Assembly (NCBI GenBank): GCA_021162905.1
Contig: JAGGXT010000237.1
Location: forward strand, 1-9,972
Length of the DNA stretch: 9,972 nucleotides
Direction: 5' to 3'
Origin: Candidatus Odinarchaeota archaeon
GTDB lineage: Archaea; Asgardarchaeota; JAGGXT01
Part shown: positions 2,746 through 7,324 of the stretch, one piece after another
How the letters are laid out: every line of letters starts with the position of its first letter
Position numbering within the stretch: the stretch's first letter is position 1
Notes under the pieces: model-generated
The model's database searches: none
Told to the model about the DNA's origin: nothing
Seen by the model: the letters and a program-made list of their open reading frames with translations, nothing else
Program-made: the position numbers and the translations under genes

Positions 2746-3123
2746 TTAAGTGAAAAATGCAAGGAAGTTGCATAGCGAAAAACATAAACAGCGACGGCTC
2801 TTTCTCTCAAATCCCTGAGCTATCAAAACGGGAATAACTTGATTAAATTTGAATCCTAATTTTTGGAAGTGCTTCGCAACCCGCCTCTTCTTTTTGTTTA
2901 ACCTATAAACTATTTTAAGCATCTTGTTTTTCGGAATCCAATAGTTTTTAACCTCGCAAACAAATAGAACTTCGAGATTTCTGCTGAAAAACACTATATC
3001 GGCACGACATGGGTGCTCCTTAAAAACAAGATAACCTCGCTCTTGCAAAGTTTTGTAAATATAGTTTTGCAGTTGGAGGCCTTTAACCCTAACTTCAGCA
3101 CCCAAACTAACCGCCTTTCTCAA
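2746..3123 (-). CDS. Small PD-(D/E)XK nuclease, Hjc/RecB-like
   Basis: Residues 14-60 follow the small archaeal resolvase/RecB-type nuclease plan: helix (GLQLQNYIYKTLQERG), strand (YLVFKEHP), then Arg40-Ala-Asp42 in RADIVFF, then Glu57-Val-Lys59 in FVCEVKNYW. These supply the D…ExK metal-binding residues. A basic helix follows (NKKKRRVAKHFQKLG), then a strand (FNQVIPVLIAQ). At about 125 residues it matches the size of Holliday junction resolvase Hjc. The final Cys/Phe-rich residues are unusual. The start is a TTG at 3123, which overlaps the Sm-like gene by 17 bases; a TTG six codons further in is an alternative. It is the last gene of the eight-gene operon, suiting a role in resolving replication or recombination intermediates. 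Specific Hjc identity is not proven. Confidence 0.7.
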   Translation of the reverse strand: MRKAVSLGAEVRVKGLQLQNYIYKTLQERGYLVFKEHPCRADIVFFSRNLEVLFVCEVKNYWIPKNKMLKIVYRLNKKKRRVAKHFQKLGFKFNQVIPVLIAQGFERKSRRCLCFSLCNFLAFFT

Positions 3124-3334
3124 CCTCAGCCAAATATAAAATACTATGCTTCGGAATCAATATTCTTCGGCCATTAAACTCTAAAAGAACATCGTATTTA
3201 TTGTATGTGTTTGTATGCAATTTTCCCATCAATTTTTGACCTGTGATAAGAGTAATTACAACTTCTTTATGGTTAAATCTTTCAAAGTATCCTTTTGGCT
3301 TCTTTTTCTTCTCGATTTTAACTTCTTTTTGCAA
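3107..3334 (-). CDS. Hfq/Sm-like RNA-binding protein
   Basis: A 75-residue protein with an Sm fold pattern: N-terminal helix (FERFNHKE), Sm1 strands VVITLITGQKLMGKLHTNTY (25-44, with the G-x-x-x-x-G spacing of VNGVKLQG-type Hfq strands), YDVLLEFNGRR (47-57), and Sm2 ILIPKHSILYL (58-68). The Lys62-His63-Ser-Ile motif strongly recalls the bacterial Hfq signature YKHAIST rather than the RG-containing Sm2 of archaeal SmAP proteins. Sm and Hfq proteins form hexamer or heptamer rings that bind U- or A-rich RNA. The start is TTG at 3334, set by a very strong AAGGAGGAGAT site 4-6 bases upstream that is itself the C-terminal coding sequence of the preceding gene. It lies in the replication operon, so it may act in RNA-based control of the element. 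The fold is fairly secure and the role is inferred. Confidence 0.72.
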   Translation of the reverse strand: MQKEVKIEKKKKPKGYFERFNHKEVVITLITGQKLMGKLHTNTYNKYDVLLEFNGRRILIPKHSILYLAEVEKGG

Positions 3335-3336
3335 AT

Positions 3337-3636
3337 CTATCTCCTCCTTTTTAAAAGTTTAAATTTAACATCATCATACAAAGATTTCAATTTTCTGACG
3401 TTTTTTACCTTAACTAGGCGGTCTTTCACATTTTTCGGCAGATTTGGAGACAGTTTTCCGCAGAAAACGTAAATTTTCCGATCACCTACCTTTACTCCTA
3501 AGAAATGTGGACACTGCAAGCAAGTTGAAACATCTACGAAACCATGTCGACTTTTACGGCAATTGCTACGGATCCAAAACTTGTTAGCAACACTATTAAA
3601 CCAGATTGCCCTTCCCTTAATTTTCTCAACCAACAT
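3337..3636 (-). CDS. Small Cys-rich putative zinc-binding protein
   Basis: A 99-residue basic protein with four cysteines in the pattern C26-x12-C39-x2-C42-x16-C59 (…STCLQCPHFLG… …IYVFCGK). This is likely one zinc site. The C-terminus is strongly basic (VKNVRKLKSLYDDVKFKLLKRRR in two helical parts), suiting nucleic-acid binding. I chose the ATG at 3634-3636: it overlaps the Alba-fusion stop by 11 bases and follows GGAGG and AGGGGA sequences. A longer reading from an ATG at 3696 would overlap by 71 bases and add residues that look like out-of-frame Alba sequence. The CLxC…C segment resembles the N-terminal Cys cluster of the upstream Alba-fusion neighbour, hinting at a shared mini-domain. No known family recognised. 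Confidence 0.65.
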   Translation of the reverse strand: MLVEKIKGRAIWFNSVANKFWIRSNCRKSRHGFVDVSTCLQCPHFLGVKVGDRKIYVFCGKLSPNLPKNVKDRLVKVKNVRKLKSLYDDVKFKLLKRRR

Positions 3637-4087
3637 TTCCCCTAAAACCTCCCCAAGCAAGCAAGATTTCGATTTCGCTGACTCTCTTACCGTCATCCCT
3701 TATTGCTGTGCCTATTCTAACTTTTTTTACAACTGTTCCAGGCAGAAGTTTGTTTTTAATGTTAACAGCGACGTCGACAGCCCTACTTATCAGTCGCCCT
3801 CTAGCTTTCAGCACACAGCGGCTAGAAGTCTCCAAAGCCTTAAGTGTTGCAAGTATATATCTCGAAATCTCCTTTTTGCCGATAAAAATAATTGAAGGTT
3901 GCAAAACATCACCTCCATCGTGGTTTTTAGGAATATAAAAACTGCAATTAGCGTAATCTTCATAATTTTTTAGAATGGCTTCTAACCTAACATCGAATAC
4001 GGTACAGAAAAACTCAAATTTCTTATTTCTCTTTTTAATTTGCAGATTTTCACAATCCAAACATTTGAAGTATTTTTGATGTTTCAC
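3626..4087 (-). CDS. Cys-cluster/Alba-domain fusion protein
   Basis: Residues 62-145 are a clear Alba domain: SIIFIGKKEISRYILA, then CVLKARGRLISRAVDVA, then LLPGTVVKKVRIGTAI and VSEIEILLAW. These match the classical Alba signatures (IGKKPVMNYVLA, IKARGRAISKAVD, I.VGS, S.IEI), including the lysine pair Lys71-Lys72 at the DNA- or RNA-contacting position. Alba proteins are dimeric archaeal chromatin and RNA-binding proteins. Ordinary Alba is about 90-100 residues, so the 60-residue N-terminal extension is the oddity: it holds C9-x2-C12-x15-C28-x19-C48, a probable zinc site. The start is a GTG at 4085-4087, directly after the stop of the upstream gene, with AAAGGAGTG 8 bases upstream. It would coat or mark element DNA, or bind RNA with the Hfq-like neighbour (inference). 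Confidence 0.85.
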   Translation of the reverse strand: MKHQKYFKCLDCENLQIKKRNKKFEFFCTVFDVRLEAILKNYEDYANCSFYIPKNHDGGDVLQPSIIFIGKKEISRYILATLKALETSSRCVLKARGRLISRAVDVAVNIKNKLLPGTVVKKVRIGTAIRDDGKRVSEIEILLAWGGFRGNVG

Positions 4088-4393: not shown

Positions 4394-4676
4394 CTTTTTC
4401 AGCCCCCATAACCTTGAAAAACACGTTTTCTCCAATCTCTATTTGCCTAATTTTACCCTGCTCCAAAAGCTCACACAAAGGCTTATAGACATCTTTCCTT
4501 AAACTGCAAATTTCGAAAAGAAAATTCCAGACATCACTTAAACTAGCTAATCGCTTATTTTTGATGAAATCAAGTAGTTTTTGCTTTACTTTTTCTTTTT
4601 CTTCTATGTCTTCTTCTCTTTCAAAAAATTTTAGATAGAAATCCATTTTCATTTGCTTAGCTTTCGTTTTTATCAT
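4377..4676 (-). CDS. Small winged-helix-like protein following MCM
   Basis: A 99-residue protein starting at ATG 4676, which overlaps the MCM stop by 20 bases with AAAAAGGGGG immediately upstream. ATGs at codons 9 and 11 are alternatives. After a charged, Glu/Lys-rich N-terminal helix (12-32), residues 33-90 look like a winged helix: VKQKLLDFIKNKRL, ASLSDVWNFLFEIC, LRKDVYKPLCELLEQGKI, and a wing RQIEIGENVFFKV. This suits a DNA-binding accessory protein made with the helicase. It might help load or target the MCM, or act as a regulator. No family recognised with confidence. Confidence 0.65.
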   Translation of the reverse strand: MIKTKAKQMKMDFYLKFFEREEDIEEKEKVKQKLLDFIKNKRLASLSDVWNFLFEICSLRKDVYKPLCELLEQGKIRQIEIGENVFFKVMGAEKGEKPR

Positions 4677-6810
4677 CCCCCTTTTTAGGAGGCTTTCTAG
4701 GCTTCCTATAATAAATGACCATGTCGTATTGGTATTCTTCGATTTTCTCCTCCCTTTTTCCCTCCCCGATGATTTTATCTAATTCTTCTTTTGGAATTCC
4801 ATGACCCTTAGCAAAATTCTCAAGCTTCCATCTCTCTAACGGGCCATTTTTATCAACATAATCGAAAATAAGTTGTTTCTTGCTTTCCCACGTGTATTCT
4901 TCCAGCTTTGCATTTGTAAAATTAGTGAACCTTTTCTTCACTATTTCACTAATATTTTTCATATCTTTTTTACTTATTGAGTCAGCATCTTTAATCAAAG
5001 TAGATATAGATTCTATTAGTGAAATAGTGAAGTTTTCCTTCACTAATTTGACATTTGTAAAAGCTTCAAGTATCTTTAAGAATTTGACTCCCTTCGTCGT
5101 TATTTGAGTCCCTACTCCTTGCTTTGTTGTGATGAGTCCGTATTTTGTTAGAAGCTTATAATCTTCCTTTACTGTTCTGTCTGAAACCCCGAGGATATTA
5201 GCTAACTCGGTTGATGACTTACCGCCGATTTTCAAAATGTTTAGTATATCAATTTGCCTTTTTGAGAGATTGTTCACAATTTCTAAAAATTCCCCTATCT
5301 TTATCTCCCTTCTACCCTCAACATCAAGCTTATACTCCCTTAGCTTAAGCATCTCCAAAGTCTTCTCATAAAATTTAACCGCTTCTTCAACATGTTTTGG
5401 TTTAACAATTACTTTCTCATGAGTTTCATCTGTTGAATGTCTAAGACAAGCGTAGGCAACAGATAGACGTGTCAAAACCTCTCTAAAACCATTATGAACA
5501 ACGGGAAGTTCTGATAGGGAATATTCCCTTATTATTCTCGCAGATTCTTCAACTATTTTTTCCCTCGCTTCATCCGTATATGTGATGTCTTCAGGCCTTC
5601 TACTCCAAGCCCAAAAGACGTGCCGAATAAAGATTTCATCAGGAATTTGCCTCCCCTTAGGTTTAGCTCTAACTATGAGTTCTGGATCGACATCAGCTTG
5701 ACTAAAAGGTAGGTAAACATCCCATCGAGTTACAAAATAGCTTTTGCTGAAAATTTTTGAGTCTAGGAGAGCTTGACATGGATACGGATATTCCTCCATG
5801 TTTTTCGGCATGTTTGAAATACCTACGATCCTTGTTCTTGCTGGCGCTTCTCCCTGAACACTTTTCCTTACAACGACTCTTTGCTGTTCTAATGCCTCCC
5901 TCATCTCTTTAACTTCTTCGACATGTAGCTTATCTAAACCATCTAGAACAACTAAGCCTAGATCGTTTAAGACTAGGGAGCCCCATATCAAAATTCGCCT
6001 TTCGGTGTCAATAGTCCAGCAGATCCCCGTTCTACCACCCGATTCAATCGCAACATAGTCTCCGAAGTTGTAGTGTTCTCCAACAAGCTGGAGAGCCGCC
6101 CTACTCTTGTAGCACTTAGTGTCGCCGAAAGCTACTATCCTCAAGCAACCTCTAATTATTTCGTTTCCATAGATGTTTGGGATTTGAGGGGGACTATGCA
6201 AAATTAGCTGTAAACTTTTTTCATAGTTTTCCCTTCCAACCATTCCAGGAGCTATTTGCACATAAGTGGCGTCATTTTCTTGGAAATACTTCTTGAAATT
6301 TACCCTATCTTCCTCTGTTATCTTAAAATTCTCAAAGGTTTCCTCCAACTCCTCTATATCATAGATTAGAAATGTTAGGTTTTTTCCCCTATCCTTCACT
6401 AATCTCCCTATTATTTTAACTTTTGTTGAGAAGGGTATTTCCCTACTTATTAGATGGGCTGCAACAGTTTGACCTATCTGTATCCTCTTCCCAATGGTTG
6501 GAATGCTTCTTAAGAATAAAACACGGTAATTCATCTGTTCATTGCTTTCAACAAAACCTTTAACATCTCTATTCTTCATTCTAGCTAACTCTAGCACTTC
6601 CTTCCTTTTGCCGAAGAGGTATACACGAAGAAAATCAAAATTTTTTTCTTCTGATAAATCCACATCAAAAACGGCTACACCGTCTTCTTCAAAAACCAAC
6701 TTTTTAGGTAAAGCCTTAGGATTACTGAAGCCAGCGATCTGAACTTTGACCTTGACCCTCCTACCGTAATGTTGCGTGTTTAAGGCGTCTTCAAGTCTTT
6801 CAAACTCCAC
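4657..6810 (-). CDS. Divergent MCM-family replicative helicase/initiator, Walker B Glu replaced by Gly
   Basis: A 717-residue AAA+ protein. Recognisable MCM features in order: Walker A GDTKCYKS (229-236, standard GDPxxxKS), Walker B VVLDGLDKL (287-295, standard xxIDEFDKM), EALEQQ (305-310), the ART segment before sensor 1 (325-327), sensor 1 ISNMPK with Asn333, the arginine finger TRWDVYLPF (Arg362), and a helical lid RLSVAYACLR (448-457). The Walker B catalytic Glu is Gly291, and no Cys zinc site is visible in the N-terminal domain. Residues 513-582 form an additional winged helix, and 640-700 look like the usual MCM C-terminal winged helix. The start is a GTG at 6810 after a strong GGAGGG site, overlapping the upstream stop by 11 bases. 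MCM hexamers unwind DNA ahead of polymerase. The altered Walker B makes unaided ATP hydrolysis doubtful. A gene symbol of mcm would overstate orthology. Confidence 0.88.
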   Translation of the reverse strand: MEFERLEDALNTQHYGRRVKVKVQIAGFSNPKALPKKLVFEEDGVAVFDVDLSEEKNFDFLRVYLFGKRKEVLELARMKNRDVKGFVESNEQMNYRVLFLRSIPTIGKRIQIGQTVAAHLISREIPFSTKVKIIGRLVKDRGKNLTFLIYDIEELEETFENFKITEEDRVNFKKYFQENDATYVQIAPGMVGRENYEKSLQLILHSPPQIPNIYGNEIIRGCLRIVAFGDTKCYKSRAALQLVGEHYNFGDYVAIESGGRTGICWTIDTERRILIWGSLVLNDLGLVVLDGLDKLHVEEVKEMREALEQQRVVVRKSVQGEAPARTRIVGISNMPKNMEEYPYPCQALLDSKIFSKSYFVTRWDVYLPFSQADVDPELIVRAKPKGRQIPDEIFIRHVFWAWSRRPEDITYTDEAREKIVEESARIIREYSLSELPVVHNGFREVLTRLSVAYACLRHSTDETHEKVIVKPKHVEEAVKFYEKTLEMLKLREYKLDVEGRREIKIGEFLEIVNNLSKRQIDILNILKIGGKSSTELANILGVSDRTVKEDYKLLTKYGLITTKQGVGTQITTKGVKFLKILEAFTNVKLVKENFTISLIESISTLIKDADSISKKDMKNISEIVKKRFTNFTNAKLEEYTWESKKQLIFDYVDKNGPLERWKLENFAKGHGIPKEELDKIIGEGKREEKIEEYQYDMVIYYRKPRKPPKKGDDKNES
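4911..5062. repeat. Inverted-repeat cluster inside the MCM gene (origin-like)
   Basis: CTTCACTATTTCACTAATA (4936-4954) has a perfect inverted copy at 5014-5032, 59 bases away. Outside these, AAATTAGTGAA (4919-4929) pairs with TTCACTAATTT (5039-5049) at equal 6-base offsets, so the arms are 36 bases long with 30 matched. CATTTGTAAAA occurs directly at 4911-4921 and 5052-5062. Six copies of a TTCACTAW motif in alternating orientation result. The cluster falls in the linker between the two C-terminal winged helices of the MCM. Confidence 0.7.
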
Positions 6811-7324
6811 TGTTTTCCCTCCTCACCTCTAACTTAACATTACACCTACTGCAAGTGAAGCTCAATTTCTCAGCTAAATCATTAGGATAATTCAGCTTAC
6901 ATCTAGGGCAACGCCAAAATTTCGGTTTCTCCTCGTTCATAATTTCAATGTAGTTTTCCAATTCAGCTATTATCCGTTCAAGAATTATTTTCCAACGTTT
7001 ACCATACTTTTCCCTTAAAATTTGTCTAATAGGAGAAGTTTCATTGTTTTTCCTAAGAGAACTAGGTTTCTTAATGAAAAACCAGCCTGTAAGAGGATAA
7101 ATGAAATCATAGATGTCGAGAAGCTTCACGGCTATCCTAGTATAGTCGTAATCCACAACTAGGAAAAGATCTTCCATGCCGATAGCAATACCTTTTAAAC
7201 CTGACTTAAGCTCCGTGAACCTAACTAATTCGGCGTTGTAACATTTTTGCTTTAACCTCTCATCTAAATTATCGACAGATTTATTGGTGGATTTGCTATT
7301 CCTATTTTTAGCTCTGTTTTTCAA
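6800..7324 (-). CDS. Zinc-ribbon protein (TFE-like ribbon), first gene of the MCM operon
   Basis: A 174-residue protein. The C-terminus is a zinc ribbon, C139-PRC142-x15-C158-SRC161, in the form CPRCxxxYxxxxAxxxxFxCxxC. That layout closely resembles the ribbon of archaeal TFE-alpha (transcription factor E) and less specifically other archaeal ribbons. The N-terminal 25 residues are basic and low in complexity. Residues 30-80 are strand-rich, with a hydrophobic segment IYDFIYPLTGWFFI (71-84), and 97-132 form charged helices (RQILREKYGKRWKIILERI). I see no clear winged helix as TFE would have. The start is a TTG at 7322-7324, placed by GGGGGT 5 bases upstream. It overlaps MCM by 11 bases and so is co-expressed with it. 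It could be a replication or transcription accessory factor. Confidence 0.72.
   Translation of the reverse strand: MKNRAKNRNSKSTNKSVDNLDERLKQKCYNAELVRFTELKSGLKGIAIGMEDLFLVVDYDYTRIAVKLLDIYDFIYPLTGWFFIKKPSSLRKNNETSPIRQILREKYGKRWKIILERIIAELENYIEIMNEEKPKFWRCPRCKLNYPNDLAEKLSFTCSRCNVKLEVRRENSGV

What the first reader, a model, noticed from the sequence alone, without database searches (positions are those of the whole stretch)
5920..5960. MCM helicase lacking the Walker B glutamate
The AAA+ Walker B motif reads VVLDGLDKL where MCMs have IDEFDKM: the catalytic Glu that activates water is Gly291 (codon GGT, read directly). Walker A is also altered (GDTKCYKS for GDPxxxKS), yet Lys235, Ser236, Asp290, Asn333 and Arg362 remain. 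Keeping the frame and the other motifs argues against simple decay. It may bind ATP without hydrolysing it efficiently, work in mixed rings with the host MCM, or be an initiator derived from MCM.
Basis: partly seen in the sequence, partly recalled or inferred. Interest (0 to 1): 0.72.

Follow-up and report, generated by a model that had tools for sequence, protein, structure and literature searches.

The report
Helicase whose catalytic glutamate apparently moved
A DNA helicase, probably from an archaeal mobile element, has lost the acidic residue that its enzyme class normally uses to split ATP, but it and its relatives share another one at the spot where a different enzyme class keeps it, so it probably still works; simple bench tests could show this.

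Summary
In detail: the 717-aa MCM-like protein at 4657-6810 (-) reads VVLDGLDKL, with Gly291 (GGT, 5938-5940) where MCM has the Walker B Glu. It is not a private mutation: 147 of 149 sequences in two families (A, the window's; B, archaeal where named) have this Gly. "May not hydrolyse ATP" is the weaker reading: the same 147 carry Glu at position 256, two residues past strand beta2, where 54 of 54 canonical MCMs have Lys, Arg or Ser. That place, the end of the strand next to Walker B, is where RecA/F1/DnaB ATPases keep their catalytic Glu. Related primase-MCM proteins of phages, viral contigs and metagenomes (C) have both Glu in 103 of 108. One family A protein, P0018, is reversed: Asn256 with Walker B Glu. 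Of 311 sequences one has neither. Most likely the catalytic Glu moved from the AAA+ to the RecA-type place through a two-Glu stage. Not shown: no coordinates or assays; the reversal rests on one protein; tree-based tests are not significant; Glu256 is also kept where the Walker B Glu is present, so it may do another job. New variant of a known kind.

The parts
4657..6810 (-). MCM-like AAA+ helicase, 717 aa (MCM-type N-terminal domain, AAA+ module, C-terminal winged helix)
6103..6126 (-). Walker A GDTKCYKS (residues 229-236)
6049..6063 (-). strand beta2 of the AAA+ sheet (residues 250-254) in the predicted model
6043..6045 (-). Glu256 (GAA): proposed relocated catalytic glutamate, two residues past the end of beta2
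5926..5952 (-). Walker B VVLDGLDKL (residues 287-295); Asp290 kept, Gly291 at the usual Glu place (5938-5940)
5812..5814 (-). Asn333, sensor 1
5725..5727 (-). Arg362, arginine finger (TRWD for SRFD)
5467..5469 (-). Arg448, conserved Arg of the C-terminal part of the AAA+ module
5110..5259 (-). winged-helix / HTH_11 domain (residues 518-567)
   Evidence: 6.8e-6

Best explanation
The protein is an active MCM-like replicative helicase, probably of an archaeal mobile element, in which the catalytic glutamate has moved. Canonical MCM, like other AAA+ ATPases, positions the attacking water with the Glu right after the Walker B Asp. Here that residue is Gly, and Glu256, just past the end of the neighbouring strand beta2, takes over the job from the place that RecA/F1/DnaB-class ATPases use; Gly291 leaves room for its side chain (inference). 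Asp290, Lys235, Ser236, Asn333, Arg362 and Arg448 keep their usual roles. Evolution went through a stage with both Glu, still seen in phage and viral primase-MCM proteins; the Walker B Glu was then lost once or twice in archaeal lineages, and one protein (P0018) carries the reverse arrangement. Shown: the conservation pattern, the predicted strand positions, the overall MCM fold. Inferred: that Glu256 reaches the water, that the enzyme hydrolyses ATP and unwinds DNA, and the order of events.
For: Counts at positions 256/291: family A 29 = 27 E/G, 1 N/E (P0018), 1 G/N (P0019); family B 120 of 120 E/G; family C 108 = 103 E/E, 2 K/E, 1 S/E, 1 N/E, 1 G/E; canonical MCM 54 = 50 K/E, 3 R/E, 1 S/E. 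310 of 311 have Glu at one of the two places or both. Of the acidic columns in residues 185-500, those conserved at 85% or more in both A (28 rows without Walker B Glu) and B are 230, 256, 283, 290, 305, 364, 373; only 256 is 0 of 24 in the canonical MCMs of that call (283 is 3 of 24), and P0018, which has the Walker B Glu, lost 256 but kept 283. E256 and G291 are each 98.7% conserved over A+B. AlphaFold2: beta2 250-254 then Glu256, beta3 286-290 then Gly291; family B protein P0035: beta2 337-341 then Glu343, beta3 376-380 then Gly381, the same offsets. [quoted passage not shown] bacterial RadA has Walker A K101, catalytic E124 and Mg ligand D170 (PMC11612176, passages), spacing K+23, here K235, E256, D290 (K+21). 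The host genomes of L011 and L013 also carry a canonical MCM with Walker B Glu (L016, L017), and so does that of P0018 (L015), so there the divergent protein is an extra copy; L011 has a tyrosine integrase gene upstream.
Against: No atomic coordinates were available, so no distance from Glu256 to the gamma-phosphate was measured. Glu256 is also conserved in family C where the Walker B Glu is present (103 of 108, many of these close kin), so it has some function besides replacing it. The reciprocal exchange rests on one protein; in family A alone a random match of the one Walker B Glu row with one of two non-Glu256 rows has odds of 2 in 29. The independent-pairs test has 3 pairs and is not significant (median p 0.5). 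Neither a single loss (A+B held together, p-AU 0.281) nor a basal place of P0018 in A (p-AU 0.104) is rejected. P0019 has neither Glu (and Gly for Walker A Asp230); L043 keeps Glu256 but has Gln for Asp290. In G004, the genome of L014, no canonical MCM was found, so 'extra copy' holds for 3 of the 4 genomes looked at. No assay is known to me for any family A or B protein.
Confidence: 0.6

Rival explanations
1. Glu256 is not the water-activating residue but a switch or structural residue (near the 'glutamate switch' place that couples the helix-2 insert to the ATP site); A and B proteins hydrolyse ATP, perhaps slowly, without a classical catalytic Glu, relying on the Walker B Asp, sensor 1 and arginines.
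For: Glu256 is conserved in family C together with the Walker B Glu (103 of 108), so it does something else there; in PspF a conserved Asn, the glutamate switch, couples the helix-2 insert to the Walker B Glu (PMC4047620, passage), and P0018 has Asn256 with Walker B Glu; one structural survey turns to the Walker B Asp and the Walker A Ser/Thr, not Glu, as proton acceptors (PMC9599734, passages).
Against: Does not explain why Glu256 and Gly291 are kept strictly together in 147 of 149, or why rows without Glu256 nearly always have the Walker B Glu (6 of 7 such rows in A+B+C).
Confidence: 0.22
2. One reading: an ATP-binding, hydrolysis-poor MCM relative that acts as initiator or loader or in mixed rings with the host MCM.
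For: Walker B Glu is absent; 3 of 4 host genomes looked at have their own MCM; mobile-element MCMs are presumed to recruit the host replisome (PMC6563490, passage).
Against: The other catalytic residues incl. Arg362 and Arg448 are at least 99% conserved over A+B; PrimPol fusion in 28 of 120 listed family B rows and in P0007 and L011 of family A; the window protein shares only 19-22% identity with the 20 canonical MCMs, which makes mixed rings unlikely (inference).
Confidence: 0.15
3. Private mutation, sequencing error or pseudogene.
For: Glu to Gly can be one base change; P0019 and L043 show that some relatives do lose further motif residues.
Against: Gly in 147 of 149 sequences from several sources; open 717-codon frame; high-confidence MCM model.
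Confidence: 0.01

Closest known systems
Canonical archaeal/eukaryotic MCM helicase (Pfam PF00493; e.g. SsoPfMCM 4r7y, 9nuk)
   Different: Walker B Glu replaced by Gly; Glu256 where canonical MCM has Lys/Arg/Ser (54 of 54); separate branch (canonical rows 100/100)
Primase-MCM fusions of phages and viral contigs (e.g. Bacillus, Microbacterium, Arthrobacter phages)
   Same: Shares Glu256 (103 of 108) and the WG..PLND stretch; among the nearest non-A relatives
   Different: Keeps the Walker B Glu (108 of 108); the two scanned here carry a DnaG-type (P0025) or AEP-type (L049) primase on the same chain
RecA/F1 class ATPases (RecA, RadA, DnaB, T7 gp4)
   Same: Position of the proposed catalytic Glu at the end of the strand next to Walker B (PMC9599734 and PMC11612176, passages)
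   Different: Different class: the window protein is an AAA+ MCM by sequence and model; RecA-type proteins usually have a hydrogen-bonding residue after the Walker B Asp (PMC9599734, passage), here Gly
AAA+ glutamate switch (PspF Asn)
   Same: A residue that acts on the Walker B Glu and the helix-2 insert (PMC4047620, passage); P0018 has Asn at 256. That the switch lies at the end of beta2 is recalled
   Different: Described as a polar partner of the Glu, not as a catalytic Glu itself; structural equivalence to 256 not measured here

Membership tests
MCM family (PF00493) | sequence match above Pfam cut-off | tested here: met
   44.9 bits against 23.3
MCM family (PF00493) | MCM fold: N-terminal domain plus AAA+ module | tested here: met
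MCM family (PF00493) | Walker A Lys-Ser/Thr, Walker B Asp, sensor 1 Asn, arginine finger | tested here: met
Canonical (cellular) MCM helicases | Walker B catalytic Glu | tested here: not met
   Gly291; 147 of 149 A+B sequences have Gly
Canonical (cellular) MCM helicases | groups with cellular MCMs in the tree | tested here: not met
   12 canonical rows form their own side of a branch, 100/100; likewise 11 rows
MCM family (PF00493) | ATP hydrolysis and DNA unwinding as a hexamer | not testable with these tools
   needs purified protein
RecA/F1 class (works-like comparison only) | Glu at the C-cap of the strand next to Walker B, none after the Walker B Asp | tested here: met
   predicted strand 250-254, Glu256 two residues on; Gly291; definition from PMC9599734 passages. 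Position by sequence and predicted strands only
RecA/F1 class (works-like comparison only) | RecA/F1 fold | tested here: inconclusive
   the 50 rows listed in each are MCM or MCM-containing replisome entries; absence from such a list does not exclude; sequence places it in MCM
AAA+ glutamate switch | residue at the exact switch place contacting the Walker B Glu | not testable with these tools
   no coordinates of the model were available

The most novel reading that the evidence does not exclude
A lineage of AAA+ replicative helicases changed its catalytic architecture: the ATP-hydrolysing glutamate moved from the AAA+ place (after the Walker B Asp) to the RecA/F1 place (end of the next strand), through a two-glutamate intermediate that phage relatives still keep, possibly twice, with one lineage having gone back. 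It would be a natural bridge between the two ways of ASCE catalysis.
Probability: 0.5. Interest if true: 0.85.

Novelty: new variant of a known kind. Interest (0 to 1): 0.7.

Why it matters
Where the catalytic Glu sits is one of the features by which AAA+ and RecA/F1 motors are told apart, and a missing Walker B Glu is commonly read as a dead AAA+ subunit. A whole clade of probably active MCM-like helicases with the Glu elsewhere would show that such calls can be wrong, would give a natural intermediate for how the two architectures can interconvert, and makes the question directly testable with a few purified proteins. It also sets apart two families of MCM-like helicases (A, B), some fused to PrimPol, that probably serve archaeal mobile elements.

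Tried and rejected
Own-genome search: no genome is held for the window. tRNA scan: none. Viral scans with family A (10 loci) and with family B (1 locus) found only C-type loci, so the window element could not be placed in a viral genome. Phage and plasmid collections: I read 8 stretches (L045-L052), all C-type; the other records listed were not read. Genome searches for more family A members: 14 of 301 genomes in the phylum of G001 had a match at 1e-20, of which 3 (G001, G003, G004) were already known family A loci, one (L030) was a fragment without the motifs, and 10 (E 5.7e-22 to 8.5e-21) scored near the level of canonical MCM and were not read; 3 of 392 at 1e-30 in the phylum of P0018's host (P0018 itself, L042, L043); no further P0018-like protein in its class (1 of 3 genomes, itself). 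Phylogenetic pair test too small to decide. The idea that the Walker A change matters was dropped: it is the clade norm. The idea that Asp283 or Glu299 replaces the Glu was dropped: Asp283 is kept in P0018 together with the Walker B Glu, and 299 is acidic in 1 of 120 in family B. Distances in the model could not be measured. PMC2806578 (glutamate switch) and PMC2715239 (BcMCM) are not held; both are known to me only as references or recall. Whether a moved Glu in MCM is already in print: searches were read as listings (titles and abstract starts), and passages of some of those papers were read; no such report was seen; subscription papers are mostly not held.

Rows dropped before counts: P0056-P0058 (inteins), L012, L027-L029, L041, L133 (same genes as rows counted), L030 (fragment), L023 (partial match), L018-L022, L024-L026 and L031-L040 (duplicates or not read), L064 (no readable frame found), and 127 of the 247 hits, which the tool did not list. 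L053-L132 are the best 80 of 436 confirmed loci, so they favour close kin of the query, and some are near-copies; L005 and L009 are partial genes. The 30 canonical control loci are the 30 best-scoring of 147 genomes, so they favour canonical sequences. Trees used 81 and 77 rows chosen from these.

Full report

The Gly is a clade trait. A protein search gave the window's own protein and 23 close relatives (P0001-P0024), 11 more distant ones and 20 canonical MCMs. A further search with one of the distant ones (P0035) opened a second family of 247 hits, 120 of them listed (P0035 included); the five listed rows whose names tell an organism are from Bathyarchaeia/Bathyarchaeota (4) and Nitrososphaerota (1). 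With loci from genomes, phages and viral contigs I sorted 311 sequences into four groups: A (the window's family, 29), B (120), C (primase-MCM proteins of phages, viral contigs and metagenomes, 108) and canonical MCM (54). The Walker B residue is Gly in 27 of 29 A and 120 of 120 B, Glu in 108 of 108 C and 54 of 54 canonical. 79 of the C rows come from the best 80 of 436 loci of one scan, and 30 of the canonical rows are the best-scoring of 147 genomes, so both sets lean to close kin.

A second glutamate. The same alignment shows Glu at position 256 in 27 of 29 A, 120 of 120 B, 103 of 108 C and 0 of 54 canonical MCM, which have Lys 50, Arg 3, Ser 1. The three profile alignments shown with solved MCMs pair this place with the Lys of the GK(G/S)SS stretch. 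In the model Glu256 comes two residues after strand beta2 (250-254) and Gly291 directly follows strand beta3 (286-290). A second model, of the family B protein P0035, gives the same: beta2 337-341, Glu343; beta3 376-380, Gly381 (61-row alignment, mean pLDDT 85.0). Among acidic columns of residues 185-500 that are conserved in both A and B, only 256 is absent from all 24 canonical MCMs then examined.

Covariation. 310 of 311 sequences have Glu at one of the two sites or both. P0018 (Candidatus Methanohalarchaeum, family A) is the mirror case, Asn256 with Walker B Glu, codons AAT and GAA. In group C the five rows without Glu256 (2 Lys, 1 Ser, 1 Asn, 1 Gly) all have the Walker B Glu. The exception is P0019, Gly256 and Asn291, which also lacks the Walker A Asp. 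This is suggestive, not proof: sequences are related, and the test on independent pairs has only 3 pairs, two of which on average go the expected way and none the other (median p 0.5).

Tree. On 81 rows, with both positions left out, A (97/98), B (100/100), C (99/91) and canonical MCM (100/100) are each one side of a branch, and B joins C (97/91). A second tree of 77 rows with more phage sequences agrees, with weaker support for C (88/79). Read with canonical MCM as outgroup, Glu256 arose before A, B and C parted, C still shows the two-Glu state, and the Walker B Glu was lost in A and in B. But holding A and B together is not rejected (p-AU 0.281), so one loss is possible. P0018 lies inside A in the first tree (with P0022 and P0023, 92/87), but its place within A is unresolved in the second, and a place at the base of A is not rejected (p-AU 0.104).

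Mechanism. In AAA+ ATPases the water-coordinating Glu follows the Walker B Asp; in RecA/F1-class ATPases it stands at the C-cap of the strand next to Walker B, a feature said to be specific for that class within the ASCE division (PMC9599734, passages). Bacterial RadA has Walker A K101, catalytic E124 and Mg ligand D170 (PMC11612176, passages). The window protein has K235, E256, D290: the RecA-type order and near-equal spacing in an AAA+ MCM. The simplest reading is that the catalytic Glu moved. Gly at 291 may be kept to make room for the Glu256 side chain (inference). In PspF the 'glutamate switch', an Asn, acts on the Walker B Glu and the helix-2 insert (PMC4047620, passage); that it lies at the end of beta2, close to position 256, is recalled, not tested. 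P0018's Asn would fit that older arrangement.

What speaks against it. Glu256 is nearly as conserved in C, where the Walker B Glu is present, so it has some function of its own; it could be a switch, with A and B hydrolysing ATP in some other way or poorly. No coordinates were available to measure distances, and no assay of an A or B protein is known to me. I put the relocation at 0.6.

Setting. Of four genomes with family A genes, three (G001 and G003, and G002, the host of P0018) also carry a canonical MCM with Walker B Glu; in G004 none was found. The family A gene of Candidatus Fermentimicrarchaeum (L011, 6927-9896) is a PrimPol-MCM fusion with a tyrosine integrase gene upstream (4495-5649), a resolvase fragment right downstream and a second integrase gene about 6 kb downstream, beyond what look like chromosomal genes. 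28 of 120 listed family B proteins carry PF09250 PrimPol; their gene surroundings were not looked at. So these are probably replication proteins of mobile elements. The window's host is unknown, and that it is archaeal is inferred from its relatives; its gene row also codes an Alba-like protein and a possible Hfq/LSm-like one.

Verdict. New variant of a known kind, interest 0.7, and directly testable.

Noticed in passing
window 3626-4087 (-): Alba-like domain protein (Pfam Alba 7.4e-11) in the same minus-strand gene row as the helicase.
   Followed up: no
window 3107-3334 (-): 75-aa protein with a weak Hfq/LSm-type match (1.7e-5, below Pfam's cut-off), overlapping the next gene.
   Followed up: no
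window 6800-7324 (-): 174-aa protein ending in a CxxC...CxxC zinc ribbon, overlapping the helicase start; the window protein and P0002 lack the N-terminal zinc cysteines that many other family A proteins have, so the ribbon may stand in for them (guess).
   Followed up: no
window 2746-3123 (-): 125-aa protein that by eye resembles a small archaeal resolvase/nuclease (D...EVKN pattern); no significant Pfam or PDB match.
   Followed up: partly
L043 (G597): Family A relative that keeps Glu256 but has Gln for the Walker B Asp and GDQRTGKG for Walker A; possibly a decaying copy.
   Followed up: no
P0019: Family A protein with neither Glu (Gly256, Asn291) and Gly for the Walker A Asp; the only one of 311 without either Glu.
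   Followed up: partly
L042 (G549): Family A relative in a genome whose matched span holds 1 TGA and 2 TAA; the motifs lie in a 647-aa open frame (E256/G291).
   Followed up: no
family B: A large family (247 hits, 120 listed) of MCM-like helicases, 28 of the 120 with PrimPol; where a source names a listed row it is mostly 'hypothetical protein' and never MCM.
   Followed up: partly
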